This document shows, piece by piece, positions 1-13,248 of a DNA stretch of 64,000 nucleotides; position 1 is the stretch's first letter; the number at the start of each line of letters is the position of its first letter. A program made the translations under genes and the position numbers. Origin of the DNA: Tropicimonas sediminicola (GTDB lineage: Bacteria; Pseudomonadota; Alphaproteobacteria; Rhodobacterales; Rhodobacteraceae). The stretch spans positions 186,001 through 250,000 of the forward strand of contig NZ_FZOY01000001.1 in the NCBI RefSeq assembly GCF_900188335.1. The letters are read 5' to 3'. Under the pieces are notes generated by a model, which had not been told where the DNA came from, did no database searches, and saw only the letters and a list, made by a program, of their open reading frames with translations.

Positions 1-126
1 AGGCTCCAGGTAGGTGTTCTGGATGTCGATGACCAGCAACGCGGTCTTCGCCGCGTCGATCGCGATGTCCTCGGGCTCCTCTGCCCCTGCGTAGTAGAAG
101 GAGCGCCAGTCGGTCTTCCAGCCCAT
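1..126 (-). CDS. Isochorismatase-like cysteine hydrolase, N-terminal part
   Basis: Only the first 42 codons lie in the window; the gene continues past base 1. The translation begins MGWKTDWRSFYY and contains ALLVIDIQN-Y around residues 29-39. This is the first beta strand of isochorismatase-fold hydrolases, with the catalytic Asp at about residue 34. The family includes N-carbamoylsarcosine amidase, nicotinamidase and biuret hydrolase, which cleave C-N bonds; the catalytic Cys would lie outside the window. The ATG is two bases after the stop of the upstream dehydrogenase, so it is the last visible gene of the leftward ABC-importer operon and probably acts on the imported compound. The substrate cannot be told from this fragment. 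Confidence 0.7.
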   Translation of the reverse strand, partial: MGWKTDWRSFYYAGAEEPEDIAIDAAKTALLVIDIQNTYLEP

Positions 127-128
127 GA

Positions 129-908
129 TCAGATCTCCGCGATCGCTTCGAGGCTCTCGGGCAGGATCTGCCCGCCATCGACGACGATCTGCTGGCCGGT
201 GATGTAGGCGGCCTCGTCGGAGGCGAAGAAGAGCGCGGCATTGCCGATATCCTCGACCGCGCCGAGGCGCTTCAGCGGGATCGACGCTGACATGGTGGCA
301 AGGTAGTCCTCGCCCAGGTCCTGCAGCCCCTCGGTATAGATATTGCCCGGCATGACGGCGTTGATCGTCGTGTTGTAACGCGACAGTTCCATCGCCGCCG
401 TCTTGAGAAAACCGAGCTGGCCGGCCTTCGAGGCGCCGTAATGCGACCAGCCGGGAAAGCCCGTCACCGGCCCGGTGATCGACGAGGTCACGATCACGCG
501 CCCCTTGCCGGCGGCTTCGAACTCGGGGATGCAGGCCTTGACGCAGAGGAAGGTCGACTTGAGGTTCGTCGCCATGACGCCGTCCCAGTCCTCGGGCGAC
601 ATCTCGACCATCTTCATCTGCGGAAAGATCCCGGCATTGGCGCAGAGGATATCCACCGCGCCGAACGCTTCCTTCGTCGCCGCCACGAGGCCCTGCACAT
701 CGTCCCAGTCGGCCACGTCGCAGAGATGATAGGCGGCGGAGCCGCCGGCAGCCTCGATCTCGGCCACGGCGGCCTTCGCGGCGTCCTCGCCGCGCGCGGC
801 GATCATGACCTTGGCCCCTTGGGCGGCGAACACCCTGGCGATGCCCTTGCCAATGCCCTTGGAGCCACCCGTGACGATCACGGCCTTTCCGGCGATGGAG
901 GTGAGCAT
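129..908 (-). CDS. Short-chain dehydrogenase/reductase (SDR)
   Basis: This is a classical cytosolic SDR of 259 residues, the usual family length. It has the cofactor motif TGGSKGIG near residue 14, a CANAG strand motif near residue 88, a catalytic Ser in VTSSIT, and an intact YGASK active-site motif around residue 157. It resembles FabG-type 3-oxoacyl or polyol dehydrogenases, but the substrate is unknown. The ATG is preceded by an AAGGA ribosome site about seven bases upstream. It follows the second permease of the importer and sits directly before the hydrolase gene, so it probably oxidises or reduces an intermediate derived from the imported amine. Confidence 0.88.
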   Translation of the reverse strand: MLTSIAGKAVIVTGGSKGIGKGIARVFAAQGAKVMIAARGEDAAKAAVAEIEAAGGSAAYHLCDVADWDDVQGLVAATKEAFGAVDILCANAGIFPQMKMVEMSPEDWDGVMATNLKSTFLCVKACIPEFEAAGKGRVIVTSSITGPVTGFPGWSHYGASKAGQLGFLKTAAMELSRYNTTINAVMPGNIYTEGLQDLGEDYLATMSASIPLKRLGAVEDIGNAALFFASDEAAYITGQQIVVDGGQILPESLEAIAEI

Positions 909-933
909 GATGAATCCTTTCCGATGGGGAGTG

Positions 934-1734
934 TCAGGTGGCCGGGCGGAGTTTCCGGATCGCCCAGGCCAGCAGCAGTGCGAGGATCACGAGGATCGCC
1001 GAGGTCGCGACGGTGAGCGTTCCGACCGTCGGCACCAACGGCGAGTAGCCGGAGACCATCTTGGCGAAGAGCCATTCGGGCAGCGTGCTGTCGGCGCCGG
1101 TGGAGAAGAGCGAGAGCGGGAAATTGCCCCAGCTCAGCAGGAAGGCGAAGAGCCCTGCGGAGGTCACGCCCGGCATTAAGAGCGGGATGGTCACCTCGCG
1201 CAGCGTCTGCCACTGGTTGGCGCCCATGTCCCGCGCGGCCTCTTCCAGCGCGGCATCGAAGGAGAAGGCGCGGATCGAGACCACGAGCGTCGCGATGGGC
1301 GCGATCCAGACCAGGTGCGCCACGATTGCCGTCTTCCAGCTCGGGATGATGCCGAGCGCGTTGAACCACATCAGGAGCGCCAGCCCGAGAACCGTCTGCG
1401 GGAAGAAGATCGGCAGCAGAATCAGCTTCTGGTACGTCTTGCGAAAGCGCCAGTTGTAGCGGGCAAAGGCGAGCGCGCCGAAGAAGCCGATGATCATCGA
1501 CAGGATCGTGACGACGCCCGCCACCTTGAGCGACACGACCAGCAGGTCGCGCACGGTGTCGGAGGTCAGGGCCTCTTCGTACCAGCCGTAGGCGTATTTC
1601 CGGATCGGGAAGGAGAGGTAGCGCGCCTTGGAGATCGAGGCGAGCCCGACCGAGACCAGCGGCAGGTAAAGAAAGCCAAGGATCAGCAGGCCGTATAGCA
1701 CGAGCAGGAAGGTGGCGAAGCGGGAGGTCTTCAT
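934..1734 (-). CDS. ABC importer permease, PotC type
   Basis: An inner-membrane permease of 266 residues, the size of PotC/YdcV-type subunits of spermidine/putrescine (POPT family) importers. About six hydrophobic segments are visible, starting with an N-terminal helix at residues 8-30. The cytoplasmic EAA loop, EEAARDMGAN followed by REVTIPLLMPG, is present near residue 165 and contacts the ATPase. The start codon overlaps the preceding permease stop by four bases (ATGA), so the two permeases are translationally coupled and form a heterodimer. The transported ligand is inferred to be a cationic amine or opine-like compound from the family only. Confidence 0.9.
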   Translation of the reverse strand: MKTSRFATFLLVLYGLLILGFLYLPLVSVGLASISKARYLSFPIRKYAYGWYEEALTSDTVRDLLVVSLKVAGVVTILSMIIGFFGALAFARYNWRFRKTYQKLILLPIFFPQTVLGLALLMWFNALGIIPSWKTAIVAHLVWIAPIATLVVSIRAFSFDAALEEAARDMGANQWQTLREVTIPLLMPGVTSAGLFAFLLSWGNFPLSLFSTGADSTLPEWLFAKMVSGYSPLVPTVGTLTVATSAILVILALLLAWAIRKLRPAT

Positions 1735-2585
1735 GATTTTCCGCCCATCATCTTGTCGAGATCGGCCTTGGAAATCGCCCAGATGGCGACGGTTCCGATG
1801 ATGGCGATCAGCACCATTGCCAGCGCCGCGCCAAGCGGCCAGTTCTGGCCATAGGTAAAGGCCGTCTGCACCTCGTCGGCGATGGTGATGATCGCACGCC
1901 CGCCGAGCAGCTTGGATTCGGCCATGGCGCCCGCCGCCAGCACGAAGGTCAGGAGCGAGCCGACCATGATCCCCGGCATCGCCAGCGGGAGGTCGATCTC
2001 CCTGAGGATCTGCCAGCGGGTCGCGCCGAGGTCGTAGGCCGCCTGCCGCGCGTCGTCCGGCACCATCGAGATGCCCTGCGCCAGCGGGAAGAGCATGAAG
2101 GGCAGGTAGACGTAGACGAGGCCGAAAACGATGATCGGACCGTTGTAGAGCGGCGCGTCGAAACCGGTGCCGGTCCAGTGCCGCCAGTAGCCCTCGATCA
2201 GCCCGCCTTTCATCAGCGTCAGAACCCAGCCGAACAGGCGGATGTTCTCGGAGACGAAGAGCGTCATCACCACGCCGATGGTCAGCACCAGCGTGAAGCG
2301 CTTGAAGACCTTGGCCATGCCATAGGCAAGCGGCCAGCAGACGACGAGCAGGATCAGCGTCGCCGCCAGCGCCATGAAGAGCGACCAGGCGACGGATTTC
2401 CAGTAGCCCTGCGCGAGCACCGTGCGATAGGCGGAGAAATCTGGCGCCTGGGAGAGGTTGAACACCTTCTCCGGCATGGTGGAGAAGGCCGCCACCAGCA
2501 GGATCGGGGCCAGGAAGGTCAGGAGAAGAAAGAGCGAGAGCGGGGCCGAATAGAGCAGCCCCAGCCGGGCGTCACGCCGCTGCAT
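1731..2585 (-). CDS. ABC importer permease, PotB type
   Basis: A permease of 284 residues with an N-terminal helix at residues 13-34 and about six membrane segments in total. An EAA loop (ARQAAYDLGATRWQILREIDLPLAMPG) is visible near residue 180. It pairs with the PotC-type permease downstream. The ATG lies inside the last codons of the ATPase gene (14-base overlap), showing tight operon coupling. Like other PotB proteins it would form half of the membrane channel. Nothing in it departs from the family. Confidence 0.9.
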   Translation of the reverse strand: MQRRDARLGLLYSAPLSLFLLLTFLAPILLVAAFSTMPEKVFNLSQAPDFSAYRTVLAQGYWKSVAWSLFMALAATLILLVVCWPLAYGMAKVFKRFTLVLTIGVVMTLFVSENIRLFGWVLTLMKGGLIEGYWRHWTGTGFDAPLYNGPIIVFGLVYVYLPFMLFPLAQGISMVPDDARQAAYDLGATRWQILREIDLPLAMPGIMVGSLLTFVLAAGAMAESKLLGGRAIITIADEVQTAFTYGQNWPLGAALAMVLIAIIGTVAIWAISKADLDKMMGGKS

Positions 2586-3645
2586 CCCGGGCCTCCTCGA
2601 TCAGGTGCGCGGCGCTCAGGTCGCAACCGACGCGCAGGGCCGCGCCGATGCCGCCTGCGACGCCGTTCTCGCGCAGAACCTCGACGATCATCTCCTGCCC
2701 GGTGGCGAGCATCATTCGGTACTGCATCCGTGAGCCGAGGAGGTATTCAGCCACGATCTCGCCCTCGAAGGTCAGATCCGCGGCCTGGCCCTCCGGCAAG
2801 GTCCGCAGGCTTTCGGGGCGGATCGTCAGCGTGCCGGAGCGGCCAGCCAGCGCGGCCGCGGTCTCCGGCGTCATCAGCAGGCCCTCTGCCTGCCCGTTGC
2901 GGAGGTCGAAGAAGTTCACCTCGCCCATGAACTCGGCGACGAATTTCGACACCGGCCGGGCATAGATCTCCTCCGCCGGGGCGATCTGTTCGAAACGGCC
3001 GGCCTTCATGATGGCGATGCGGTCGGACATGACCATCGCTTCCTCGAGGGAATGGGTGATGTAGATGAAGGTCTTGCCGGTGCGGCGGTGCAGATCCTTC
3101 AGCTCCTTTTCCAATGTCTTGCGCAGCCGGTAGTCGAGCGCCGACAGCGGCTCGTCGAAGAACAGGATCTCTGGGTCGAAGGCGAGGGCACGGGCCAGCG
3201 CCACGCGCTGCTTTTCCCCGCCCGAGCATTGCTGGATGCGCTTGTCATAATAATCCCGGGGCAGGCGCAGTGTATCGAGCAGTTCCAGCGCGCGGGCCTT
3301 GCGCTCGGCCGGCGGCACCTTGCGAAGCTTGAGCGGGAACTCGATGTTCTGCCCGACCGTGCGGTGCGGGAACAGGGCCAGGGATTGGAACACCATGCAG
3401 GTCGGCCGCTTGTTGGCCGGCACCACGTCGATCCGGGTGTTGCGCAGCCAGACCGCGCCGTCGCTCAGCTCGTCCATGCCGACGAGGATTCGGATGAGGG
3501 TTGTCTTGCCGGAGCCGGACGGGCCGACGATGGCAAGAAACTCCCCTTCGGCAACGTTCAGGTCGACGCCATGCAGCGCGGTGAAGTCGTCGAACCGCTT
3601 GGTCAGGGCATTGATGCGGAGGATCGGTTGGGAGGCGTCGGTCAT
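2572..3645 (-). CDS. ABC importer ATP-binding protein, PotA type
   Basis: The ATPase subunit of the amine-type importer, 357 residues. Walker A GPSGSGKTT is at residues 41-49. The signature is CSGGEKQR, a variant of LSGGQ, and Walker B (EILFFDEP) and the H-loop His (YITHS) are intact. Residues from about 240 onward form the TOBE-type C-terminal domain usual for MalK/PotA-class ATPases. It would drive transport with the two downstream permeases. It follows the binding-protein gene after a 73-base gap that holds a hairpin, and overlaps the next permease gene. Confidence 0.92.
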   Translation of the reverse strand: MTDASQPILRINALTKRFDDFTALHGVDLNVAEGEFLAIVGPSGSGKTTLIRILVGMDELSDGAVWLRNTRIDVVPANKRPTCMVFQSLALFPHRTVGQNIEFPLKLRKVPPAERKARALELLDTLRLPRDYYDKRIQQCSGGEKQRVALARALAFDPEILFFDEPLSALDYRLRKTLEKELKDLHRRTGKTFIYITHSLEEAMVMSDRIAIMKAGRFEQIAPAEEIYARPVSKFVAEFMGEVNFFDLRNGQAEGLLMTPETAAALAGRSGTLTIRPESLRTLPEGQAADLTFEGEIVAEYLLGSRMQYRMMLATGQEMIVEVLRENGVAGGIGAALRVGCDLSAAHLIEEARDAAA

Positions 3646-3669
3646 GTGCGATGTCTGATCCGGAAGTAG

Positions 3670-3694
3670 CGCCGCCCCCGGCGAACCGGCGGCG
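3670..3694 (-). other. Intercistronic hairpin after the binding-protein gene
   Basis: A perfect inverted repeat with 7-base arms CGCCGCC/GGCGGCG and an 11-base loop lies in the 73-base gap between the binding-protein stop and the ATPase start. There is no T tract, so it is not a simple intrinsic terminator. By analogy with other importer operons it may protect the 3' end of the binding-protein message or attenuate read-through, raising binding protein over membrane subunits. Confidence 0.4.
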
Positions 3695-3718
3695 AGCGCA
3701 TGGGGATGGTGCTGTGGC

Positions 3719-4852
3719 TCACCCGCGGCGGGCGGCGGTGTAGATTTCCATCAGCTTGTCGTAGTCGGCGACGCTGTCGTACTCGACCGAGCGCGCGCTC
3801 TCCTCTTCGAGGCTGTCCCACTGGATCGCGTCGAGTTCGTCCTCGTCGTAGAGCGCAAAGACCTCCGGGTCGCCCATCTGTGCGACCGGGTTATAGGTGC
3901 CTTCGGCAAAGCCCACGGCCTTGGCGATCTCCGGCTTCTGGACGAACTCCAGGAAGTCGGAAGCCAGCGGGCTCGGGTCCGGGTTGTTGACGAGCGAGGT
4001 CAGTTCGGCCCAGACAACGCCGCCCTTGCCGTCGATCGGCCCGGTCTTGGGCGTGATGCCGCGGATCTGGGTCATGCCGTCGAGACGCGCGGGCGAGGCC
4101 GTGTAGGTGCCGCCGGTGAAATAGGCATCGATCTCGCCGTTGATCAGGGCGGTGTTCATGGCGACGAGGTCGTCGGTCATCATCTTGGCGCCGGCAAAGA
4201 TCGTCTTGGCGGTGTCCTCGAAGGTGGTGAAGCCGGCCTCGTCCAGCGGCTGGAACGGGTTCAGGTCGCCGGTCAGGCACATGTGGATGAGGTTCCAGTT
4301 GTCATAGGTCAGGATGCCGAAGCGCCCGGCCATGTCCGGCTCCAGGAACAGCTTCCAGCCCATGTCCTCGGCCATTTCGCGGCTGATCTTGTCGGTGTTC
4401 ACGACAAAGGAGAACGGGCCATAGCGCTGCGGCATGCCGATCAGTTCGTCATCTTCGGCAAAGGCGAGCGGGTAGGGAGGCGTGCCGTATTCCGGCGTCA
4501 TCTTCTCGAAGAAGGGCATGAAGCGCTCCTTGTCGAGCGGCTTGATGAGCCCCTCGGGGTAGAGCATGCCGCGCGCCCAGGGTTGGTTGAGGTTGATGAG
4601 ATCCCAGACATTCACCTCGCCGGCGCGCAGCTTGTTGATCATGTCCGGGTCCGAGGTGCCGGATTCCGCGCGAACCGTGGCGGAGGAGAACATGTCGCGG
4701 AAGGGGCCGAGCACGTCATCTGTGTTGTAGCCCTCCCAGCAGAGGATGTTCAGCTCGCCGCTTCGGTCGGCGAGCGACATCGACGGGCGCAGCAGCGACG
4801 CGGCGCCTGCGGCACCGAGAGCGGCGGTAAAGGACCGGCGGGTGAGGTTCAT
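3719..4852 (-). CDS. Periplasmic binding protein, PotD/spermidine-putrescine type
   Basis: An extracellular solute-binding protein of 377 residues from the ATG at 4852. I prefer this start to an in-frame TTG at 4864 because GGAGAG lies just upstream at good spacing and the protein then begins MNLTRRSF. That twin-arginine motif, followed by a hydrophobic stretch and an Ala-rich cleavage region near residue 30, suggests Tat export. The mature part begins ELNILCWEGY, typical of PotD-like proteins. It is the first gene of the leftward operon and sets ligand specificity, probably an amine or amino-acid derivative. The exact ligand is unknown. Confidence 0.9.
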   Translation of the reverse strand: MNLTRRSFTAALGAAGAASLLRPSMSLADRSGELNILCWEGYNTDDVLGPFRDMFSSATVRAESGTSDPDMINKLRAGEVNVWDLINLNQPWARGMLYPEGLIKPLDKERFMPFFEKMTPEYGTPPYPLAFAEDDELIGMPQRYGPFSFVVNTDKISREMAEDMGWKLFLEPDMAGRFGILTYDNWNLIHMCLTGDLNPFQPLDEAGFTTFEDTAKTIFAGAKMMTDDLVAMNTALINGEIDAYFTGGTYTASPARLDGMTQIRGITPKTGPIDGKGGVVWAELTSLVNNPDPSPLASDFLEFVQKPEIAKAVGFAEGTYNPVAQMGDPEVFALYDEDELDAIQWDSLEEESARSVEYDSVADYDKLMEIYTAARRG

Positions 4853-5005
4853 CGGGCTCTCCAATTCTGTCGGATGCGCGGGCCGGAAGCCTGCGCGTTC
4901 AGTGGCGCCATGCGGCGGATCGGGCCGCGCGGCATGCGGAACTGCATGTGGTTCGTTTGGCGAACGTGCCGTCGCCTTGCCTGGACGCTTCCAAAAAATT
5001 TCTGC

Positions 5006-5029
5006 ACTTGCAACACAAATGTTGCAAGT
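5006..5029. promoter_or_regulatory. Candidate operator dyad between divergent operons
   Basis: A perfect inverted repeat, ACTTGCAACA-CAAA-TGTTGCAAGT, lies in the 235-base region between the importer operon (leftward) and the kinase operon (rightward). Symmetry extends imperfectly outward (TTCTG on the left, CAGAA on the right). It is 58 bases upstream of the kinase ATG and could control both directions. The most likely local binder is the DeoR-type repressor at 7400-8188, which is an inference from proximity. Confidence 0.55.
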
Positions 5030-5087
5030 AACAGAAAAAATGATCTACAGACCATGTATCGGATCCCGAAGCGAGGAAATTTTCACC

Positions 5088-6080
5088 ATGCTCTATCAAG
5101 ATGATTTCATCGCGGGCTTGCAGCAGGGCCTGAAACCCCTTCTTTGCAAGTGGAATCTCTCGGAGGAGTCGGATCTTCGGCTGCTCACCGTTTCCGAGAA
5201 CGCGACCTTCATCGCCCGGGATCCGGCGCGGCAAAATCCCGTAATTCTGCGACTTCACAGGCCAAACTACCACAAAGTGGAAGAAATCCGCTCCGAACTC
5301 GCGTGGATTTCTGCGTTGCGGCAATCGGGAGCGGTGGACACGCCGGCGCTGGTGCCGGCCGAGGACGGTGCGCTAGTCGTCTCGTTCGAGGACGGCGCGG
5401 ACATCCGCCACGTCGTCGCCTTCGAGTTCATGGAAGGCACGGAGCCGGATGCCGACGCGGCCTTGGTCGACGGGTTCCGCCTGCTGGGAGAGATCTCGGC
5501 GCGGCTGCACCGCCATGTGGAAAGCTGGGACGCGCCCGAGGGGTTCGCACGCAAGACCTGGGATTTCGACAGCGCCTTCGGCGATGCCCCGCTCTGGGGA
5601 GACTGGCGCGCCGCTCTCGGCCTCACTCCCGAGGGCGAGGCCCTGCTGGAGCAGGCGCTGGAGCGTCTGAAGGCGCGTCTGGCCAGCTACGGAAAGGGGC
5701 GCGACCGGTTTGGCCTCGTTCACGCGGATCTGCGACTTGCCAACCTGCTCCAGAGCGAGACCGGCCTCGGCGTGATCGACTTCGACGATTGCGGGTATTC
5801 CTGGTTCGTCTACGACTTCGCGGCGGCCATCTCCTTTCACGAACTCAATCCGATCGTGCCGGACCTCACCGCCGCCTGGCTCGAAGGCTACCGGACGGTT
5901 CGGCAGCTCTCGGCGGCGGACGTCGCGATGATTCCCGACTTCATCATGTTCCGCCGCCTGCTGCTGACCGCCTGGATCGCCAGCCATTCCGAGACCGAGA
6001 CGGCCCGCGATGCCGGGTTGTCCGATTATACGGACGGCACCCTGACGATCGCGCGCACCTATCTGGAGGGGCGGGCATGA
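5088..6080 (+). CDS. APH-family small-molecule kinase (hydroxylysine/ethanolamine/homoserine kinase-like)
   Basis: A 330-residue kinase of the aminoglycoside-phosphotransferase fold. The catalytic loop GLVHADLRLANLL (Brenner motif HxDxxxxN) and the metal-binding VIDFDDCG are intact near residues 207-235. The ATG at 5088 is preceded by GAGGAA at nine bases, which fixes this start over longer in-frame extensions. The stop overlaps the start of the PLP enzyme (ATGA), so the two are made together. Family members phosphorylate hydroxyl groups of amines and amino acids. Pairing with a phospholyase-type class-III PLP enzyme points to a hydroxylated amine such as hydroxylysine or an amino alcohol. 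An antibiotic-resistance role is unlikely in this setting. Confidence 0.8.
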   Translation: MLYQDDFIAGLQQGLKPLLCKWNLSEESDLRLLTVSENATFIARDPARQNPVILRLHRPNYHKVEEIRSELAWISALRQSGAVDTPALVPAEDGALVVSFEDGADIRHVVAFEFMEGTEPDADAALVDGFRLLGEISARLHRHVESWDAPEGFARKTWDFDSAFGDAPLWGDWRAALGLTPEGEALLEQALERLKARLASYGKGRDRFGLVHADLRLANLLQSETGLGVIDFDDCGYSWFVYDFAAAISFHELNPIVPDLTAAWLEGYRTVRQLSAADVAMIPDFIMFRRLLLTAWIASHSETETARDAGLSDYTDGTLTIARTYLEGRA

Positions 6081-7399
6081 GCGCCCAAACGGCTCAGGGG
6101 CAGGCCCGGCAGATCCTCGACATGAACGCCTATCGGCCCGGCGACGGCCAGAGCCGCCCGGTCGAACGGCGGCTCGCCAACCTCGGCGCCGCCTCGGTTC
6201 TTTTCTACCGGCAGCCGATCGAGATGGTCGGGGCGGAAGGCGCCTGGATGATCGCGAAGGACGGCACGCGCTATCTCGACTTCTACAACAACGTGCCCAG
6301 CGTCGGACATTCCCATCCGAGGGTCGTCGAGGCGGTCAGCCGGCAGATTGCGCAGCTCAACACCAACACGCGCTACATCGTGTCGGTGGTCGATGACTAC
6401 CTCGAGGCGCTCAAGGCCCTGCTGCCGCCTGAGCTCTCCAACGTCATGATGACCTGTTCGGGCAGCGAGGCAAACGATCTCGCCATTCGCGTCGCGCGGG
6501 CGGCGACCGGGGGCACCGGGATCATCGTCACGGAGACGGCCTATCACGGCAACACGGCGCTGGTGACCGAGGTGTCCCCTTCAGCGCTCAAGCGTGGCAG
6601 CCTGCCGGAGACGGTCATCGCTATTCCACCGCCCGGCGCGGCGCATTTCGGCGAGGACATCGCCGGCGGCTTCCGCGCCAGTGTCGAGGCCGCGCTGGCG
6701 GAGTTCGGACGCCGCGGGATCCGGCCCGCCGCGTTCCTGGCGGATTCCATCTTCTCCTCCGACGGCATCCTCGCGGACCCTCCGGGCTTCCTGGCGCCCG
6801 TGGTGGAGGCGGTCCGGGCCGCCGGCGGGCTCTTCATCGCTGACGAGGTGCAGCCGGGCTTCGGCCGCACCGGCGACGCCTTCTGGGGCTACGAACGCCA
6901 CGGCGTGACGCCGGATATTGTCACCATGGGGAAGCCGATGGGCAACGGTTTCCCGATGGCTGCGATGGTCGCCAGGCCCGATCACCTGGAGCAGTTCTGC
7001 GCGGACGTGGGGTATTTCAACACGTTCGGGGGCAACCCGGTGGCCGCTGCCGCCGGCCACGCGGTGCTGGACGTGATCCGCGAGGAAGGCCTGCAGGAGA
7101 ATGCGCGCGAGACCGGCGCGCACCTGCTGGCCGGGCTGCGGCAGGTCGCTGAGGGTGATGCGCGGGTCACGGATGTCCGCGGGGCGGGGCTGTTCATCGG
7201 GATCGATCTGGCCGAAGAGACCGGCCGCCCCGACCCGGCCTTCACGGTGCAGCTGATCGACGCGATGCGGGCTCACAAGGTGCTGATCGGCGCGGCTGGA
7301 CGATATGGCGCGACGCTCAAGGTCCGCCCGCCGCTCTGCCTGACCCGGGAGGAGGCCGAGCGTTTCGTCGAGGCGTTCCGCGCCGCGCTCGCCGGATGA
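6077..7399 (+). CDS. Class-III PLP enzyme, aminotransferase or phospholyase type
   Basis: A fold-type I PLP enzyme of 440 residues. It shows the N-terminal YLDFYNNVPSVGHSHP motif, GSEANDLA for phosphate binding, ADEVQPGFGRTG holding the cofactor Asp, and the Schiff-base Lys at residue 286 in MGKPMGNG. The N-V-GH-HP and DEVQ-GFGR patterns are shared with eukaryotic phosphohydroxylysine and ethanolamine-phosphate phospholyases (AGXT2L1/2), which release phosphate and ammonia rather than transaminate. It is coupled to the upstream kinase, whose product would be the substrate. An ordinary omega-aminotransferase activity remains possible. The stop codon abuts the stop of the convergent regulator without any spacer. 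Confidence 0.8.
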   Translation: MSAQTAQGQARQILDMNAYRPGDGQSRPVERRLANLGAASVLFYRQPIEMVGAEGAWMIAKDGTRYLDFYNNVPSVGHSHPRVVEAVSRQIAQLNTNTRYIVSVVDDYLEALKALLPPELSNVMMTCSGSEANDLAIRVARAATGGTGIIVTETAYHGNTALVTEVSPSALKRGSLPETVIAIPPPGAAHFGEDIAGGFRASVEAALAEFGRRGIRPAAFLADSIFSSDGILADPPGFLAPVVEAVRAAGGLFIADEVQPGFGRTGDAFWGYERHGVTPDIVTMGKPMGNGFPMAAMVARPDHLEQFCADVGYFNTFGGNPVAAAAGHAVLDVIREEGLQENARETGAHLLAGLRQVAEGDARVTDVRGAGLFIGIDLAEETGRPDPAFTVQLIDAMRAHKVLIGAAGRYGATLKVRPPLCLTREEAERFVEAFRAALAG

Positions 7400-8188
7400 T
7401 CAGGCCTTGTCGGCCACCATCACCCTGACCTCGTTGCGGTCGAGCGCGCGGGCCAGCGGGCCGTCGGGCGTCCTGTCCGTCACCAGGCACTCGATCTGGC
7501 TCCATTCGGCGTAGCGCGCGGTCGACATGCGGTCGAACTTCGAATGGTCGGCAACGATCATGCTGCGGCTGGATTGCCGGAGCATGGTCGCATAGACCTC
7601 CGCCGCCTCGATCAGCGCGTCGCTGGGGCCGTCGGGCGACAGGGCGGAGGCCCCAAGAATGGCCCAGTCGGCAGTGTAGTCCTGAAGGAACCGGATCGCC
7701 TGCGCCCCGTGCATCGCGCCTTCCGCGGCATGGTACTCGCCCGGCACCATGATGGTGCGGATCGTCGGGTTCTGGGCCAGCGCTGTCGCCACGGCAAAGC
7801 TGTGGGCGATGACGGTGACGTTGCGCAGCTCGAAAGCGAGCCGTTTGGCGAGGATCGCGGTCGTCGCACCGGAGCCGATCAGGAAGGTCTTGCCTTTCGC
7901 CAGCTCGACGAAGGCCCGCCGGGCGATCGCCTCCCGCTCGCGCACCAGCTGCCGTTCGCGCTGCGACAGCACCGGCTCGTTGCCCGCGCGCAGCATCGCG
8001 CCGCCGTAGGTGCGGCTGATCAGGCCCTGTTCCGCTAGCTCCTCGAGATCGCGCCGGATCGTCTCGGTCGTCACGTCGAGCCGGCTCGCGAGCGCCTTGA
8101 CCCGCATCGTCGGTTCATCGGCGAGGATGGCCAGGATCTCGTTCCGCCGCCGGCCTTTCTTCGAGAGATTTCCTGCACCTGTCGGCAA
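7400..8188 (-). CDS. DeoR/GlpR-family transcriptional repressor
   Basis: A 262-residue DeoR-family regulator. An N-terminal winged helix (RRNEILAILAD, then VTTETIRRDLEELAEQGL near residues 38-58) is followed by the DeoRC sensor domain with its nucleotide-like GSGATT loop near residue 105 and VADHSKFDR near residue 215. It probably starts at TTG 8188, because a GGGAG site lies nine bases upstream and no ATG is available. DeoR-family effectors are typically phosphorylated pathway intermediates, which fits a neighbouring kinase. It is convergent with the PLP enzyme gene, with directly abutting stops, and divergent from the M42 hydrolase gene. Confidence 0.88.
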   Translation of the reverse strand: MPTGAGNLSKKGRRRNEILAILADEPTMRVKALASRLDVTTETIRRDLEELAEQGLISRTYGGAMLRAGNEPVLSQRERQLVREREAIARRAFVELAKGKTFLIGSGATTAILAKRLAFELRNVTVIAHSFAVATALAQNPTIRTIMVPGEYHAAEGAMHGAQAIRFLQDYTADWAILGASALSPDGPSDALIEAAEVYATMLRQSSRSMIVADHSKFDRMSTARYAEWSQIECLVTDRTPDGPLARALDRNEVRVMVADKA

Positions 8189-8446
8189 TGAACCTGTCTC
8201 CCGCTCCTATCCCCAGGACCTCCGCGGCTCGCCCGCATCCCTGAAGCTATTGCGCACCGGCGCGGGAAAGCCAAGGCCCGCGGGTCGACTGCGCGGCGTC
8301 CCGGCAGCGGGCCATGCTGCGTCATGCATGGGATTTTCTGGCGCCGCTCCATGTGCAGCCGGCGAAATCATGGTATGCCCCGACCAATGCCCCGGGCCAT
8401 GGCTCACAGAGGGCGCATCGTCAGACAGCAGGGGACCCGACCGTAC

Positions 8447-9619
8447 ATGTCCGAAACACCCACACGCCTCGACATCGACGTCGACTATCTTCAGCGCTGC
8501 CTCGCGGGCCTGTTGGAGATCCCGAGCCCGACCGGCTACACCGACGAGATCGTCCGTTCCGTCTGTACGGAGCTGGAAAGCCTTGGGATCGAATACCAGC
8601 TGACCCGCCGCGGCGCGATTCGGGCCCGCCTGCCGGGACGGCGCTCGGCCGGTGCCCGCGCCATCGTCTCGCATCTCGATACCCTCGGCGCGCAGGTCAA
8701 GGCGCTCAAGCCCAACGGGCGGCTGGAGTTGGTGCCGATCGGGACCTGGTCGGCGCGATTTGCCGAAGGCGCGCGGGTGACGATCTTTACCGAGAAGGGG
8801 GCCTATCGCGGCACGATCCTGCCGCTGAAAGCCTCCGGTCACACCTACGGCGACGAGATCGACAAGATGCCCATCGGCTGGGACCACGTGGAGCTGCGCG
8901 TCGATGCACGGGCGGACTCCGCCGAGCAGCTCGGCATGCTCGGGATCGATATCGGCGACATCGTGGCCGTCGATCCGCAACCGGAATTCTCCGATACCGG
9001 CTACATCATCTCCCGCCACCTGGACAACAAGGCCGGCGTTGCGGTCATGCTGGCCTCCATGCGCGCGCTGATCGATGCGCCGCAGCCGCCGGTGGACGTC
9101 TACTGGCTCTTTACCATCGCCGAAGAGGTCGGGCACGGCGCGGCTGCGATCCTGCCGCCCGAGGTCGCCTCGATGGTGGCGGTGGACAACGGCACATCGG
9201 CGCCGGGGCAGAACTCGTCGGAATTCGGCGTTACCCTGTCGATGGCCGACATGGGCGGACCCTTCGATTATCACCTCACCCGCAAGCTCGCCAAGCTGTG
9301 CCAGGAAAACGACATCCGGATGCGCAAGGACATCTTCCGCTACTACCGGTCCGACAGCGCCTCGGCCCTCGAGGCCGGCGCGGATGTACGCACCGCGCTG
9401 GTGACTTTCGGGGTCGATGCCAGCCACGGCTACGAGCGCATCCACATGCACGCGCTGCGCTCGCTCTCCGAGCTGCTCACGGCCTACACGCTCAGCCCCG
9501 TAGCGATCCCGCGCGACGAGAAGGACATTGGCGATCTGTCGGGTTTTACTCGCCAGCCCACCGCCGCGGCGAGCTCTCCGGCCCCGGCGCCGTCGGAGCG
9601 GACGGCCGACCCCGCGTGA
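8447..9619 (+). CDS. M42-family hydrolase of the NAGGN osmoprotectant set
   Basis: A cytosolic metallopeptidase-like protein of 390 residues. Co-catalytic metal positions are recognisable: SHLDTLG, the bridging Asp in RHLDNKAG, the catalytic Glu pair in AEEVGHG, VAVDNG, and the final His in DASHGYERIH. Among M42 proteins it resembles the member that accompanies N-acetylglutaminylglutamine amide synthesis, whose exact role is unsettled. Here it is separated from asnO and ngg by about 9 kb, whereas it usually adjoins them. The ATG at 8447 follows GGGGA at 11 bases; longer in-frame starts exist but would add unrelated sequence. The last 30 residues are low-complexity (Ala/Pro/Ser). Confidence 0.82.
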   Translation: MSETPTRLDIDVDYLQRCLAGLLEIPSPTGYTDEIVRSVCTELESLGIEYQLTRRGAIRARLPGRRSAGARAIVSHLDTLGAQVKALKPNGRLELVPIGTWSARFAEGARVTIFTEKGAYRGTILPLKASGHTYGDEIDKMPIGWDHVELRVDARADSAEQLGMLGIDIGDIVAVDPQPEFSDTGYIISRHLDNKAGVAVMLASMRALIDAPQPPVDVYWLFTIAEEVGHGAAAILPPEVASMVAVDNGTSAPGQNSSEFGVTLSMADMGGPFDYHLTRKLAKLCQENDIRMRKDIFRYYRSDSASALEAGADVRTALVTFGVDASHGYERIHMHALRSLSELLTAYTLSPVAIPRDEKDIGDLSGFTRQPTAAASSPAPAPSERTADPA

Positions 9620-9639
9620 CGCGGCCGGGCAGGCAGGGG

Positions 9640-10431
9640 TCACTGCCTGTCCGTCTCGCGCAGGAACTGGCGGAGCACGACGCTTTCCTGTTGCTCCATG
9701 ATGTCCTGCGCGGTGTTCAGATGCGCGCGCATGATCGCCTTGGCCGCGCCGGCATCGCCCGCCCGCAGCGCCTGCAGCAGGCGCGACTGGTAGTCCCGGC
9801 CGGATTCCCGGAAGCCCGGAATCTCGCGGCTGTAGATCTTGCGGCAGATCGTGAGCTCCTTGAGCAGGCTGATGAGGAACCGGCACTGGAAGCGCAGCAG
9901 CGCATTGGGTGAGTAATCTGCCAGCAGGGCGTGGAAATCGAGCTCCGCCATGCGCTGCCGTTCGGCCTCTTCGATGGTCTCGGGCGGTGTCTCGTAGGCC
10001 GTCATCACCTGCTCGAGTTCGCCGATCTGGGCGTCGGTGAGCTGCCCGGCGAGCTGGGTGACAAGCACCGGCTCCAGCGCGCGCCGCAGCGCGTAGATGT
10101 CGGCGATCCCGATCTCGTTGAAGTAGAAGTAATTGCCCAGGAGCGCCCGGGCCCGCGCCTCGGAGACCTCGTTGACGAAGGCCCCGCCGCCGGGTCCGGT
10201 GCGCGTGCGGATCAGGCCCTGTGCCTCCAGCACACGCAATGCCTCGCGGATCGTGCCCTTGGCCATGCCGAAATGGGCCATCAGCTCCGCCTCGCCCGGC
10301 AGCCGGTCGCCGGGGCGCATGCCGCGTTCGACGACCCAGTCCTTGATGGCGGCCGCGGCGCGTTGCGGCCGGCTCATCCGGGGCGTGTCAGCGGGCAGGG
10401 TGGTGGCAGGCGGCGTGATGTCCCGTTCCAT
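9640..10431 (-). CDS. GntR-family regulator, FadR/FCD type
   Basis: A 263-residue regulator with an N-terminal GntR winged helix (RPQRAAAAIKDWVVERGMRPGDRLPGE, then GTIREALRVLEAQGLI) and a C-terminal helical FCD ligand domain. Metal-binding FCD His/Asp positions are visible in ELDFHALLA and in the IMRAHL helix. The start is uncertain. ATG 10431 has GGAGGA very close upstream and overlaps the ATPase gene by 44 bases; ATG 10377 would begin right at the DNA-binding domain. It is the last gene of the peptide-importer operon and probably represses that operon and the divergent hydrolase operon, perhaps through the dyad at 15884-15927. Confidence 0.86.
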   Translation of the reverse strand: MERDITPPATTLPADTPRMSRPQRAAAAIKDWVVERGMRPGDRLPGEAELMAHFGMAKGTIREALRVLEAQGLIRTRTGPGGGAFVNEVSEARARALLGNYFYFNEIGIADIYALRRALEPVLVTQLAGQLTDAQIGELEQVMTAYETPPETIEEAERQRMAELDFHALLADYSPNALLRFQCRFLISLLKELTICRKIYSREIPGFRESGRDYQSRLLQALRAGDAGAAKAIMRAHLNTAQDIMEQQESVVLRQFLRETDRQ

Positions 10432-11359
10432 GGTCCTCCAGGGGCGGCTTGGTGCGATGGCAGATCTCGGTGGCGGCCGGGCAACGCCGGGCAAAGGCGC
10501 AGCCGGGCGGCGGGTTCAGCGGATCGGGCAGCTCCGCATCCGCGGCCTCGGGGGCGGCGAGCGGGCGCCCGACGACGGGGGCGGAGCGCGCGAGCAACGC
10601 GGTGTAGTGGTGGCGCGGCCGGGCAAAGATCTCCCGCGCCGGGGCCAGCTCGACGATCGCGCCGAAATACATCACCGCGACCCGGTCCGCCACGGCCTCG
10701 ACCACGGCGAGGTCGTGGCTGATGAACAGGTAGGTGAGGTCGAATTCCTCCCGCAACTGCGAAAGCAGGTTCAGGACCTGCGCCTGCACCGAGACATCGA
10801 GCGCCGAGACCGGCTCGTCCAGAACGAGGATGCGCGGGGCGGCCGCGAGCGCGCGGGCGATGCCGATCCGCTGGGCCTGCCCGCCGGAGAACTCGTGCGG
10901 GTAGCGATCCAGGAACTCCGGGCGCAGGTTCACCGCGTCGAGGATCTCGGCGATCCGGGCCGCACGCTGCTCGGCAGGCATGCGATGCAGGCGCTTCAGC
11001 GGTGCCTCGAGGATCTGCCGGATCGTCTTGCGCGGGTTCAGAGAGGACAGCGGGTCCTGGAAGACGTACTGGATGACCTTGCCGAAGGCGGCCGGGTCGC
11101 GGCCCGCCCGCTCGGCATAGTTCACGCCTTCGATCTCGATCGTTCCGGCCGAGGGCGGCAGCAGGCCCACGATCATCCGCGCAAGCGTCGATTTCCCGCA
11201 GCCGGATTCGCCGACGATGCCCAGCGTCTGGCCCCGCGCGACATCGAGCGAGGCCGATTGAACCGCATGGACCGATGGTTTCTCCTTGCCGAAGCCAAGC
11301 AGGCCGCGCCCGCCGCCAAAGCGCTTGTCGAGGTCGCGGATGCGCAGGGTGTCGGTCAT
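10388..11359 (-). CDS. Peptide ABC importer ATPase, DppF/OppF type
   Basis: The second ATP-binding subunit of the Dpp/Opp-type importer, 323 residues. Walker A GESGCGKSTLA is near residue 54, followed by a full signature FSGGQAQR, Walker B RILVLDEP and the H-loop FISHD. The C terminus has the oligopeptide-transporter ATPase extension with CAFARRCP cysteines near residue 290, a motif that can bind an iron-sulphur cluster in some relatives. ATGA coupling joins it to the upstream fused permease-ATPase gene. It would dimerise with the ATPase half of that fusion. Confidence 0.92.
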   Translation of the reverse strand: MTDTLRIRDLDKRFGGGRGLLGFGKEKPSVHAVQSASLDVARGQTLGIVGESGCGKSTLARMIVGLLPPSAGTIEIEGVNYAERAGRDPAAFGKVIQYVFQDPLSSLNPRKTIRQILEAPLKRLHRMPAEQRAARIAEILDAVNLRPEFLDRYPHEFSGGQAQRIGIARALAAAPRILVLDEPVSALDVSVQAQVLNLLSQLREEFDLTYLFISHDLAVVEAVADRVAVMYFGAIVELAPAREIFARPRHHYTALLARSAPVVGRPLAAPEAADAELPDPLNPPPGCAFARRCPAATEICHRTKPPLEDHGTGHHAACHHPAR

Positions 11360-13248
11360 GCGCGGGCCTCCTCGGGGGCGATCTCCGGATGGAGGCAGCG
11401 CAGCGCCCGCGAAGGCCCGAAGCCCTCCAGTGCGATCTCGCCGCGGCGGCAGGCTTCGGTGGCCTTGTCGCAGCGCGGGGCAAAGGCGCAGCCGTCGGGA
11501 AGGTCGTCGACCGCGGGCGGCAGGCCGGGGATCGCGTGCAGCTCCCGCCGGCCGCCGCCCAGTTCCGGCACGCAGGCGATGAGACGGCGGGTATAGGGAT
11601 GCGCGGGCGCCGCGAGGATCTCGGCGGTCGGCCCGGTTTCCACGATCCGCCCGGCATACATGACCGCGATCCGGTCGCAGAGCTGCGCCACGACGCCGAA
11701 ATCATGGGTGATGAACAGGATCGCCACATCTCGTTCGCGGCGGAGGTCGTCGAGCAGCGCAAGGATCTGTGCCTGCACGGTGACGTCGAGCGCGGTGGTG
11801 GGCTCGTCGGCGATGATCAGGTCGGGTTCGTTCACGAGGGCCATGGCGATGCCGACGCGCTGGCGCATGCCGCCCGAAAGCTCGTGCGGAAAATCGTCCA
11901 TCCGCCGGTCCGCGTTCGGGATTCGCACGGCTTCCAGCAACGCCAGCGCCCGGGCCCGGGCCTCGGCCCGCGGCACGGCGTGGTGCGACTGGATCGCCTC
12001 GACGATCTGGTCGCCCACGGTGAAGAGAGGGTGCAGCGTCGCCAGCGGGTCCTGGAAGATGTAGGAGATGCGGTCGCCCCTGAGCTTGCGCAGTTCGGAA
12101 AACGGCGCGCCGAGCACTTCCTGCCCGGCATAGCGCACCGCGCCGCCGGCAATGACGCCGGGCGGCGATGCGACGAGCCCCATGACCGAAAGCGCGGTTA
12201 CGGACTTGCCGGAGCCGGATTCCCCGATCAGCCCGAGGCACTCGCCCGCCCGCACCTGCAGCGTCACGCCCGAGAGCGCCTTGAGCGTCCGCTTTCCAAC
12301 CCGGAACTCGGTTCGCAGGTCCTGCAGATCGAGCAGGGCGGGATCGGCGGGAGGTTCCGGCACGCTGTCGCGGTCGACCGTCGTGCGTGCCATCGGCCGG
12401 GTCAGCGCGCCGGAGCGCAGCCGCGGGTCGAGCGCGTCCCGGATGCCGTCGCCCATCAGGTTCACGCTCATCACGATGACGAAGATCATGAGGCCGGGGA
12501 TGATCGAGGCATGTGGATCGGTGATCAGCGCATTGCGTCCCTCGCCGAGCATCGACCCGAGGTCGGCCACCGGCGGTTGCGAGCCGAGCCCGAGGAAGGA
12601 GAGCCCCGCTGTCTCGAGGATCATCCAGCCGACAGTCGTGGACATGGCGATGACGATGACCGGCAGCACGTTCGGCAGGATCTCGGACGTCATGATCCGC
12701 AGGTCCGTCATCCCGGCCAGCCGCGCGGCATCGACGAACTCCTTGTGCGCGAGAGTCACCGTCACGCCGCGGATGTTGCGGGCGAAGAAGGGGATGTTGA
12801 CCACCGAAACCGCGATCAGCGCGTTCACCAGGCCCGGGCCAAGTGCTGCGACGATGGCGAGGGCGAGCAGGATGTAGGGAAAGGCCATCAGCATGTCGAT
12901 CCCGCGCATCAGCCAGTTGTCGACCCGCCCGCCGAAGTAGCCCGCGACGATGCCGATGGTCGAGCCGAAGAAGGCCGCCCCGAAGGAGGCGACGAGCCCT
13001 ACGACGAGGCTCAGCCGCGTGCCCCAGATCAGCCGCGAGAGGATGTCCCGGCCGAGGTGGTCCGTGCCGAGCAGGTGGCCGTCGGAGAACGGCCGGAGGA
13101 ACTTGTTGGCCGTGTCCTGGGCATAGGGATCCGCCAGCGGCAAGACCGGCGCGAGCAGCGCGATCACGACGACGACGACAAGCAGGACGCCGCCCGCCGC
13201 GGCGAGCCGGTTGCGGGCGAAGAGCCTGAGCGAGGCGGCGACGCTCAT
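11356..13248 (-). CDS. Fused DppC-type permease and DppD-type ATPase
   Basis: One uninterrupted frame of 630 residues encodes two importer subunits. Residues 1-290 are a DppC/OppC permease with an N-terminal membrane helix, the LLGTDHLGRDILSR motif and about six helices. After a short linker (about 290-315) comes a complete DppD/OppD ATPase with GESGSGKSVTA, LSGGMRQR, LIIADEPTTALD and FITHD. The C-terminal CAFAPRCD region matches the oligopeptide ATPase extension. No internal stop or frameshift is seen. ATGA overlaps link both ends to DppB- and DppF-type genes. Such fusions are known in this family; here it implies one fixed membrane-ATPase chain per transporter. Confidence 0.9.
   Translation of the reverse strand: MSVAASLRLFARNRLAAAGGVLLVVVVVIALLAPVLPLADPYAQDTANKFLRPFSDGHLLGTDHLGRDILSRLIWGTRLSLVVGLVASFGAAFFGSTIGIVAGYFGGRVDNWLMRGIDMLMAFPYILLALAIVAALGPGLVNALIAVSVVNIPFFARNIRGVTVTLAHKEFVDAARLAGMTDLRIMTSEILPNVLPVIVIAMSTTVGWMILETAGLSFLGLGSQPPVADLGSMLGEGRNALITDPHASIIPGLMIFVIVMSVNLMGDGIRDALDPRLRSGALTRPMARTTVDRDSVPEPPADPALLDLQDLRTEFRVGKRTLKALSGVTLQVRAGECLGLIGESGSGKSVTALSVMGLVASPPGVIAGGAVRYAGQEVLGAPFSELRKLRGDRISYIFQDPLATLHPLFTVGDQIVEAIQSHHAVPRAEARARALALLEAVRIPNADRRMDDFPHELSGGMRQRVGIAMALVNEPDLIIADEPTTALDVTVQAQILALLDDLRRERDVAILFITHDFGVVAQLCDRIAVMYAGRIVETGPTAEILAAPAHPYTRRLIACVPELGGGRRELHAIPGLPPAVDDLPDGCAFAPRCDKATEACRRGEIALEGFGPSRALRCLHPEIAPEEARA

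What the first reader, a model, noticed from the sequence alone, without database searches (positions are those of the whole stretch)
1..8188. Candidate import-kinase-phospholyase pathway for a hydroxylated amine
A polyamine-type ABC importer with a Tat-exported binding protein is divergent from an APH-fold kinase coupled by ATGA to a class-III PLP enzyme. The PLP enzyme shares motifs with AGXT2L1/2 phospholyases. In animals, hydroxylysine kinase and phosphohydroxylysine phospholyase form the same two-step logic: phosphorylate, then eliminate phosphate and ammonia. Here an SDR and an isochorismatase-like hydrolase could process the resulting carbonyl. The whole set with its own repressor looks like a bacterial amino-alcohol or hydroxylysine catabolic module that I cannot match to a named pathway.
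Basis: partly seen in the sequence, partly recalled or inferred. Interest (0 to 1): 0.72.

Follow-up and report, generated by a model that had tools for sequence, protein, structure and literature searches.

The report
Compartment-free aminopropanol breakdown gene cluster
A bacterium carries a self-contained gene set that most likely imports the small amino alcohol 1-amino-2-propanol (or aminoacetone), tags it with phosphate and splits it into an aldehyde and ammonia; related chemistry is known from a protein-shelled organelle of other bacteria, but here it appears to run without the shell and with a different splitting enzyme.

Summary
The kinase's only close solved relative is 6ef6, the SDR's are 6ci8/6ci9 (recalled as Mycobacterium smegmatis (S)-1-amino-2-propanol kinase and dehydrogenase). 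The PLP enzyme lies, with full support, in the clade of the phospholyases 5g4i and 6tor, away from aminotransferases. So the module is most likely the 1-amino-2-propanol/aminoacetone pathway of the RMM/Aut microcompartment, without a shell (no BMC domain in the genome). Hydroxylysine is not supported. Of 80 named kinase loci, 57 hold this PLP enzyme (fused to the kinase in five), 46 of these also the SDR. In three other named loci and six further genome loci with kinase and SDR the slot holds a different class-III enzyme (five of these nine with BMC shell genes); no locus examined holds both. Four BMC loci in the window's family carry the same importer, SDR and isochorismatase-like hydrolase. 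A perfect palindrome (5006-5029), unique in the genome, is the likely DeoR operator. What seems new: the shell-free set with its own importer, hydrolase and operator, and the exchange of PLP enzymes, which bears on a disputed microcompartment step. The substrate is inferred, not assayed; the hydrolase's role is open.

The parts
1..126 (-). isochorismatase-family cysteine hydrolase, N-terminal end only (gene continues to window coordinate -557)
   Evidence: PF00857 120.8 bits for the whole protein; D34, K134 and C167 invariant in 15 aligned homologues; predicted fold matches BiuH, TrtA, RutB, NicF
129..908 (-). SDR, likely 1-amino-2-propanol dehydrogenase (aminoacetone <-> 1-amino-2-propanol)
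   Evidence: best PDB hits 6ci8 (4.3e-91) and 6ci9 (3.7e-90); 82-89% identical in three loci beside the same kinase/PLP pair
934..1734 (-). ABC permease, PotC type
   Evidence: PF00528; best NCBIfam model PotC, below its cut-off
1731..2585 (-). ABC permease, PotB type
   Evidence: PF00528; best NCBIfam model PotB, below its cut-off
2572..3645 (-). ABC ATPase, PotA type
   Evidence: PF00005 and TOBE_2; best NCBIfam models PhnT2 and PotA, below their cut-offs
3719..4864 (-). exported binding protein with twin-arginine N-terminus, PotD/PotF fold (start TTG 4864, or ATG 4852)
   Evidence: twin-arginine pair conserved; Foldseek top matches PotF/PotD, best E 5.4e-18, probability 1.00
5006..5029 (.). 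perfect inverted repeat ACTTGCAACA-CAAA-TGTTGCAAGT, candidate operator of the DeoR repressor
   Evidence: only match in the 5.17 Mb genome at up to 3 mismatches; TGTTGCAA within 300 bp upstream of the kinase in 21 of 37 named loci with DeoR nearby, 2 of 43 without
5088..6080 (+). APH-fold kinase, likely (S)-1-amino-2-propanol kinase
   Evidence: PF01636; 6ef6 4.8e-85, next PDB hit 4.8e-17
6077..7399 (+). class-III PLP enzyme of the phospholyase clade, likely aminopropanol-phosphate phospho-lyase
   Evidence: 5g4i 1.3e-100, 6tor 5e-91, next 9.8e-48; clade with both at 100/99 support; P287 and K415 in 55 of 55 clade rows, 0 of 14 rows outside
7400..8188 (-). DeoR-family regulator, probably the module's repressor
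   Evidence: PF08220 and PF00455; a homologue at 45% or more lies in 36 of 57 named kinase+PLP loci

Best explanation
A regulated, shell-free catabolic module for (S)-1-amino-2-propanol and/or aminoacetone. A PotD-type ABC importer takes up the small cationic substrate (inferred). The SDR interconverts aminoacetone and 1-amino-2-propanol (by homology). The kinase makes 1-amino-2-propanol O-phosphate (by homology). The PLP enzyme eliminates phosphate and ammonia to give propionaldehyde (phospholyase clade shown by tree; substrate inferred), which general aldehyde dehydrogenases take to propionate/propionyl-CoA (inferred). The isochorismatase-type cysteine hydrolase probably frees the amine from an amide or carbamoyl precursor (weakly inferred). 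DeoR represses both divergent units through the palindrome at 5006-5029 (inferred from conservation).
For: Kinase to 6ef6 and SDR to 6ci8/6ci9 (the link of these entries to the M. smegmatis papers is recalled, the paper titles were seen in reference lists). PLP clade. 57 of 80 named kinase loci hold the PLP enzyme, 46 of these 57 the SDR; 0 of 36 comparison loci (L044-L079) hold the SDR. Kinase and PLP enzyme fused in one open frame in 5 loci. An actinobacterial locus, L175, has kinase and SDR homologues with shell proteins, aldehyde dehydrogenase and diol dehydratase, as described for RMM2 in PMC4207490 (passages). Four BMC loci of the window's family carry importer (binding protein 70-75%), SDR (77-78%) and hydrolase (73-76%) homologues of the window's. 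Hydrolase and kinase are both in 8 of 390 genomes (14 and 26 hold each; Fisher p 2.9e-7). Operator.
Against: No activity is shown. 6tor acts on phosphoethanolamine by its name, 5g4i as recalled, so ethanolamine is chemically possible. Polyamine-type importers usually carry larger cations (general knowledge). The hydrolase also sits, without the kinase, near an acetamidase/formamidase in 5 of 20 hydrolase loci examined, three of them from the window's own genus, so it is not specific to this pathway. L041 keeps kinase and PLP enzyme but has no SDR or hydrolase in 20 kb. 19 of 80 named kinase loci have none of the partners tested in the stretch held; some of these are short contigs.
Confidence: 0.77

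Rival explanations
1. The module degrades ethanolamine: the kinase makes O-phosphoethanolamine, the PLP enzyme gives acetaldehyde and ammonia.
For: The closest characterised PLP enzymes, 5g4i and 6tor, are phospholyases; phosphoethanolamine as substrate is in the name of 6tor and recalled for 5g4i.
Against: An SDR of the aminopropanol dehydrogenase type would have no role; it is present in 46 of 57 named kinase+PLP loci. The kinase is far closer to 6ef6 than to choline/ethanolamine kinases (Choline_kinase Pfam 22.7 bits, below its cut-off of 29).
Confidence: 0.12
2. The substrate is hydroxylysine or another longer hydroxylated amine (2-hydroxyputrescine, 4-amino-3-hydroxybutyrate), taken up by the polyamine-type importer.
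For: PotD/PotF fold of the binding protein; the chemistry fits any vicinal amino alcohol with a terminal amine.
Against: SDR and kinase both point to aminopropanol; the same importer genes stand in RMM-type BMC loci; by eye, no gene for aminoadipate semialdehyde is among those called around the module.
Confidence: 0.07
3. The PLP enzyme is an aminotransferase that makes lactaldehyde or methylglyoxal, as proposed for the Aut/RMM compartment by PMC6620236 (passages) and PMC4207490 (passages).
For: Class-III fold; those papers propose it for the compartment's enzyme.
Against: The window enzyme is not the compartment's enzyme (24-30% identity between the two kinds in the loci; 25% between the window PLP and one BMC-type enzyme) and lies in the phospholyase clade; it is adjacent to, or in other species fused with, a kinase that a transamination route would not need before it.
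Confidence: 0.04

Closest known systems
RMM / Aut (aminoacetone utilization) bacterial microcompartment of Rhodococcus and Mycobacterium (Axen 2014, PMC4207490, and Ravcheev 2019, PMC6620236, passages; Mallette and Kimber 2018, recalled)
   Same: aminopropanol-type kinase, aminopropanol dehydrogenase-type SDR, a class-III PLP enzyme; the versions in the window's family also have the same importer and hydrolase and a DeoR gene
   Different: window genome has no BMC shell domain and no close relative of the BMC aldehyde dehydrogenase (best 32%) or of the BMC PLP enzyme (best 31%); its PLP enzyme is of the ETNPPL/A1RDF1 lineage; the published RMM transporter is a permease
O-phosphoethanolamine phospholyases: Arthrobacter A1RDF1 (5g4i; name and activity recalled) and human ETNPPL/AGXT2L1 (6tor)
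   Same: same clade, same catalytic lysine and clade residues
   Different: partner genes point to aminopropanol phosphate rather than phosphoethanolamine
animal hydroxylysine kinase and phosphohydroxylysine phospholyase (recalled; title seen in a reference list)
   Same: two-step logic: phosphorylate, then eliminate phosphate and ammonia
   Different: no sequence evidence here for hydroxylysine; the kinase groups with 6ef6
amino-alcohol kinase and amino-alcohol-phosphate phospho-lyase activities of Pseudomonas/Erwinia (Jones, Faulkner and Turner, 1970s; recalled, not read)
   Same: same reactions, known as activities
   Different: importer, SDR, hydrolase and repressor are not part of that description as I recall it

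Membership tests
ETNPPL/A1RDF1 phospholyase clade | closer by sequence to characterised phospholyases than to aminotransferases | tested here: met
   1.3e-100 and 5e-91 against 9.8e-48 for the next entry
ETNPPL/A1RDF1 phospholyase clade | one supported clade with both characterised members, aminotransferases outside | tested here: met
   42-row clade 100/99 in a 58-row careful tree, 17 of 75 rows left out; 55-row clade, SH-aLRT 99, in the quick tree of all 75 rows
ETNPPL/A1RDF1 phospholyase clade | clade-specific residues | tested here: met
   P287 and K415 in 55 of 55 clade rows, 0 of 14 aminotransferase-side rows (some gapped there), 0 of 6 BMC-type rows
ETNPPL/A1RDF1 phospholyase clade | phosphate release without transamination | not testable with these tools
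   needs an enzyme assay
(S)-1-amino-2-propanol kinase (6ef6) | close sequence relation, APH catalytic motifs | tested here: met
   4.8e-85, next 4.8e-17; HADLRLAN and IDFDD aligned with 6ef6
(S)-1-amino-2-propanol kinase (6ef6) | activity on 1-amino-2-propanol | not testable with these tools
   needs an assay
1-amino-2-propanol dehydrogenase (6ci8/6ci9) | close relation over full length | tested here: met
   4.3e-91 over 259 of 259 residues
RMM/Aut bacterial microcompartment | BMC shell proteins | tested here: not met
   no PF00936 match at E <= 0.001 in the genome
RMM/Aut bacterial microcompartment | compartment-type aldehyde dehydrogenase and PLP enzyme | tested here: not met
   best own-genome matches to one BMC-locus example of each are 32% and 31%
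RMM/Aut bacterial microcompartment | kinase and SDR | tested here: met
hydroxylysine degradation | kinase related to animal hydroxylysine kinase | not tested
   no such sequence was compared; NCBIfam and PDB hits do not name it

The most novel reading that the evidence does not exclude
Two distinct class-III PLP lineages fill the same slot after the same kinase and SDR: an ETNPPL-type phospholyase in shell-free loci and an ArgD/PatA-side enzyme in RMM-type loci. If both eliminate phosphate and ammonia, phospholyase activity arose twice in this fold, the disputed microcompartment step is settled as propionaldehyde formation, and the shell is optional. The conserved cysteine hydrolase and PotD-type importer then mark a common natural source, an amide of aminoacetone or 1-amino-2-propanol, that has not been recognised.
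Probability: 0.33. Interest if true: 0.58.

Novelty: new variant of a known kind. Interest (0 to 1): 0.42.

Why it matters
Published models of the RMM/Aut compartment disagree on what its PLP enzyme makes: methylglyoxal (PMC4207490), lactaldehyde (PMC6620236) or, as recalled from Mallette and Kimber 2018, propionaldehyde by a phospholyase. A shell-free set, with a phospholyase-clade enzyme next to or fused with the kinase, supports the last route and gives a simple system in which to test it. It also adds a dedicated importer, a hydrolase and a likely operator to the pathway and shows that kinase and phospholyase travel together, patchily, across Proteobacteria and a few other phyla.

Tried and rejected
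Considered and rejected: true aminotransferase (trees); PbfA (186.8 bits against a cut-off of 525); hydroxylysine route (no supporting gene seen); SDR as FabG despite the NCBIfam name (398.7 bits over a cut-off of 333), because the nearest solved relatives are 6ci8/6ci9; SDR or hydrolase as chance neighbours. R99 of the PLP enzyme looked like a phospholyase marker but occurs at that column in 4 of 14 aminotransferase-side rows, so it is not used.

Led nowhere: a paper search for a dimethylpyrazine source of aminoacetone (listing; PMC4349456, abstract and passages, not relevant); a paper search for amino-2-propanol with isochorismatase, which gave one paper, PMC4207490; papers on A1RDF1, the human phospholyases and the M. 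smegmatis kinase, which are not held. Sutter 2021 (PMC8217296, passages) names RMM only in passing.

Limits: the BMC-type PLP enzymes were not tested for a shared mechanism; the 'same slot' idea rests on gene content and position only. Three of the four genomes with BMC loci (G074, G130, G099; G228 was not among the genomes) hold other matches to the window's PLP enzyme elsewhere, so the exclusion holds for loci, not genomes. Neighbour genes not covered by a family search are named by eye. That the window's family is the roseobacter/Paracoccus group is inferred: two relatives in it (G159, G039) have contigs of the same length as Salipiger records.
Full report
What is there. The window starts at G000:C17:186001. 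On the minus strand run a binding protein (3719-4864), PotA (2572-3645), PotB (1731-2585), PotC (934-1734), an SDR (129-908) and an isochorismatase-family hydrolase of which only the first 42 codons lie in the window. On the plus strand an APH-family kinase (5088-6080) overlaps a class-III PLP enzyme (6077-7399) by ATGA; a DeoR-family regulator (7400-8188) is convergent with them. The binding protein gave no hit in Pfam, NCBIfam or the PDB sequences, but a model from 12 homologues (mean pLDDT 75) matches PotF and PotD structures first (best E 5.4e-18; TM to target 0.72-0.82 in the top 25).

The PLP enzyme is a phospholyase by descent. Its closest solved relatives are 5g4i ('phospholyase') and 6tor ('Ethanolamine-phosphate phospho-lyase') at 1e-100 and 5e-91; the next, dialkylglycine decarboxylase, is at 1e-47. 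In a 58-row tree (17 of 75 rows left out to remove long or redundant rows) it lies in a 42-row clade (100/99) with both of these and with long fusion proteins (1016-1084 residues; the NCBIfam models PRK06148/PRK06149 match both window proteins). E. coli GabT, PuuE, PatA and ArgD and four class-III aminotransferases of the same genome are outside, and L077/L078 are the sister group; the quick tree of all 75 rows, with eight such own-genome enzymes, agrees. P287 and K415 are present in 55 of 55 clade rows and in 0 of 14 rows outside it. The score for PbfA is 186.8 bits against a cut-off of 525.

Kinase and SDR give the pathway. The kinase's only close PDB relative is 6ef6 (4.8e-85; next 4.8e-17), the SDR's are 6ci8 and 6ci9 (4.3e-91 and 3.7e-90). 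I recall these entries as the Mycobacterium smegmatis (S)-1-amino-2-propanol kinase and dehydrogenase of Mallette and Kimber (2018); the PDB names are generic, and I saw only the paper titles in reference lists. A second line needs no recall: PMC4207490 (passages) describes RMM microcompartment loci with a phosphotransferase, an SDR that converts amino-2-propanol to aminoacetone, an aminotransferase and, in RMM2, diol dehydratase; locus L175 (Nanopelagicales) holds kinase (47%) and SDR (59%) homologues of the window's with BMC shell proteins, aldehyde dehydrogenase and diol dehydratase.

Conservation. 57 of 80 hold a PLP homologue at 45% identity or more; in 56 of the 57 it starts between 18 bases before and 133 bases after the aligned end of the kinase, and in 5 loci (L111, L113, L114, L115, L152) the two are one open frame of 771-784 residues. 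L165, a short contig, is the exception. Of the 57, 46 hold the SDR, 36 DeoR, 25 the binding protein and 11 the hydrolase; ten loci hold the whole set. Of 36 comparison loci (L044-L079, most with PLP enzymes of other subclades; L044's is in the window's subclade), 0 hold SDR, DeoR, binding protein or hydrolase at the same thresholds. Of the 23 loci without PLP, 19 show no partner in the stretch held; 28 of the 80 loci are shorter than 20 kb. The core that recurs is SDR, kinase-PLP and DeoR; importer and hydrolase are present in some lineages, and an amino-acid permease stands beside the core in L111.

Compartment and shell-free versions. In four genomes of the window's family (G074, G099, G130, G228) the importer, SDR, kinase and hydrolase follow BMC shell genes, an aldehyde dehydrogenase, a class-III enzyme, a DeoR gene and diol dehydratase (family searches of examples). 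Binding protein, SDR and hydrolase there are 70-78% identical to the window's. RMM2 in Paracoccus yeei is in print (PMC8156839, passages). The class-III enzyme there belongs to another lineage, on the ArgD/PatA side. Of 50 named loci with kinase and SDR, 46 hold the phospholyase-clade enzyme, 3 the other (L163, L168, L175), 1 neither (L179), 0 both. Six more genome loci (L084-L087 with their extensions L180-L183, L095, L097) hold the other; the window, L040, L042, L043, L080 and L096 hold the phospholyase. L095, L097, L163 and L168 show no shell gene in the stretch held, so the other enzyme is not tied to a shell. The window genome has no BMC shell domain and no close relative of one BMC-locus aldehyde dehydrogenase or PLP enzyme.

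Regulation. The region between the two divergent units holds a perfect palindrome, ACTTGCAACA-CAAA-TGTTGCAAGT (5006-5029), 59 bases before the kinase start and unique in the genome at up to three mismatches. TGTTGCAA, on either strand, occurs within 300 bases upstream of the kinase in 21 of 37 named loci with DeoR nearby and 2 of 43 without (expected from single-base shuffles 0.28 and 0.10; Fisher p 1.9e-7); one of the two, L115, has a DeoR gene cut by the contig end. A looser scan for two TTGCAA half-sites eight bases apart found the full 12 of 12 in only seven or so loci, mostly Methylophaga-type, so the exact spacing is not general. Related loci are not independent, and the p-value is indicative.

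The hydrolase. It is a cysteine hydrolase of the BiuH/TrtA/RutB/NicF fold with D34, K134 and C167 invariant in 15 homologues. Of 390 genomes of the order, 14 hold it and 26 the kinase, 8 both (p 2.9e-7; the two draws are taken to be the same 390, as the handles suggest; in G369 the two genes lie on different contigs). In 5 of 20 hydrolase loci (L081, L082, L083, L088, L098), three of them from the window's own genus, an acetamidase/formamidase gene lies nearby (in pieces in L088), with a peptide-type ABC transporter and, in L081-L083 and L098, AmiC/AmiR-like genes (Pfam for L082 only). None of these five has the kinase. An amide or carbamoyl precursor is therefore plausible; its identity is open.

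Verdict. What seems new is the shell-free module with its own importer, hydrolase and operator, and the exchange of PLP lineages, which bears on the disagreement between PMC4207490 (methylglyoxal), PMC6620236 (lactaldehyde; passages) and the recalled phospholyase proposal. My searches for this in print were limited to an open-access library. That this kinase is widely associated with a candidate phospholyase in Proteobacteria is, as I recall, already in the 2018 abstract; I could not read it.

Noticed in passing
window 8324-9619: M42 peptidase over the cut-off for the osmoprotectant NAGGN system (TIGR03106, 577 bits against 397.75), next to a GntR-type regulator and peptide-type ABC transporter genes (by eye).
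   Followed up: no
L057 (G000:C11:54401-74400), 9379-11585: The same genome has a second PLP-kinase pair of the phospholyase clade, in a different context that recurs in other genomes of the family.
   Followed up: partly
L111:9992-12307, also L113, L114, L115, L152: Kinase and phospholyase fused in one open frame in Methylophaga-type loci, with SDR and (where the contig allows) DeoR alongside.
   Followed up: yes
L180-L183 with L084-L087: RMM2-like BMC loci in the window's family with a PotD-type importer and the cysteine hydrolase attached.
   Followed up: partly
L045:5358-16262: A kinase-phospholyase pair lies between ureidoglycolate lyase and genes that look like the beta-hydroxyaspartate cycle (the cycle is recalled, by eye; Pfam of four genes).
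   Followed up: no
L048, L050, L051, L052: Another kinase-phospholyase subfamily has, in most of these loci, a histone-deacetylase-type gene (Pfam for L048 only) and in some an ArgE-like deacetylase (by eye), hinting at an acetylated amine as source.
   Followed up: no
L061, L072, L074: Kinase-phospholyase pairs next to an aldehyde dehydrogenase-like gene and a UPF0261 protein (by eye; Pfam for L074 only), possibly for a further substrate.
   Followed up: no
L081, L082, L083, L088, L098: The cysteine hydrolase near an acetamidase/formamidase and a peptide-type ABC transporter, without the kinase module.
   Followed up: partly
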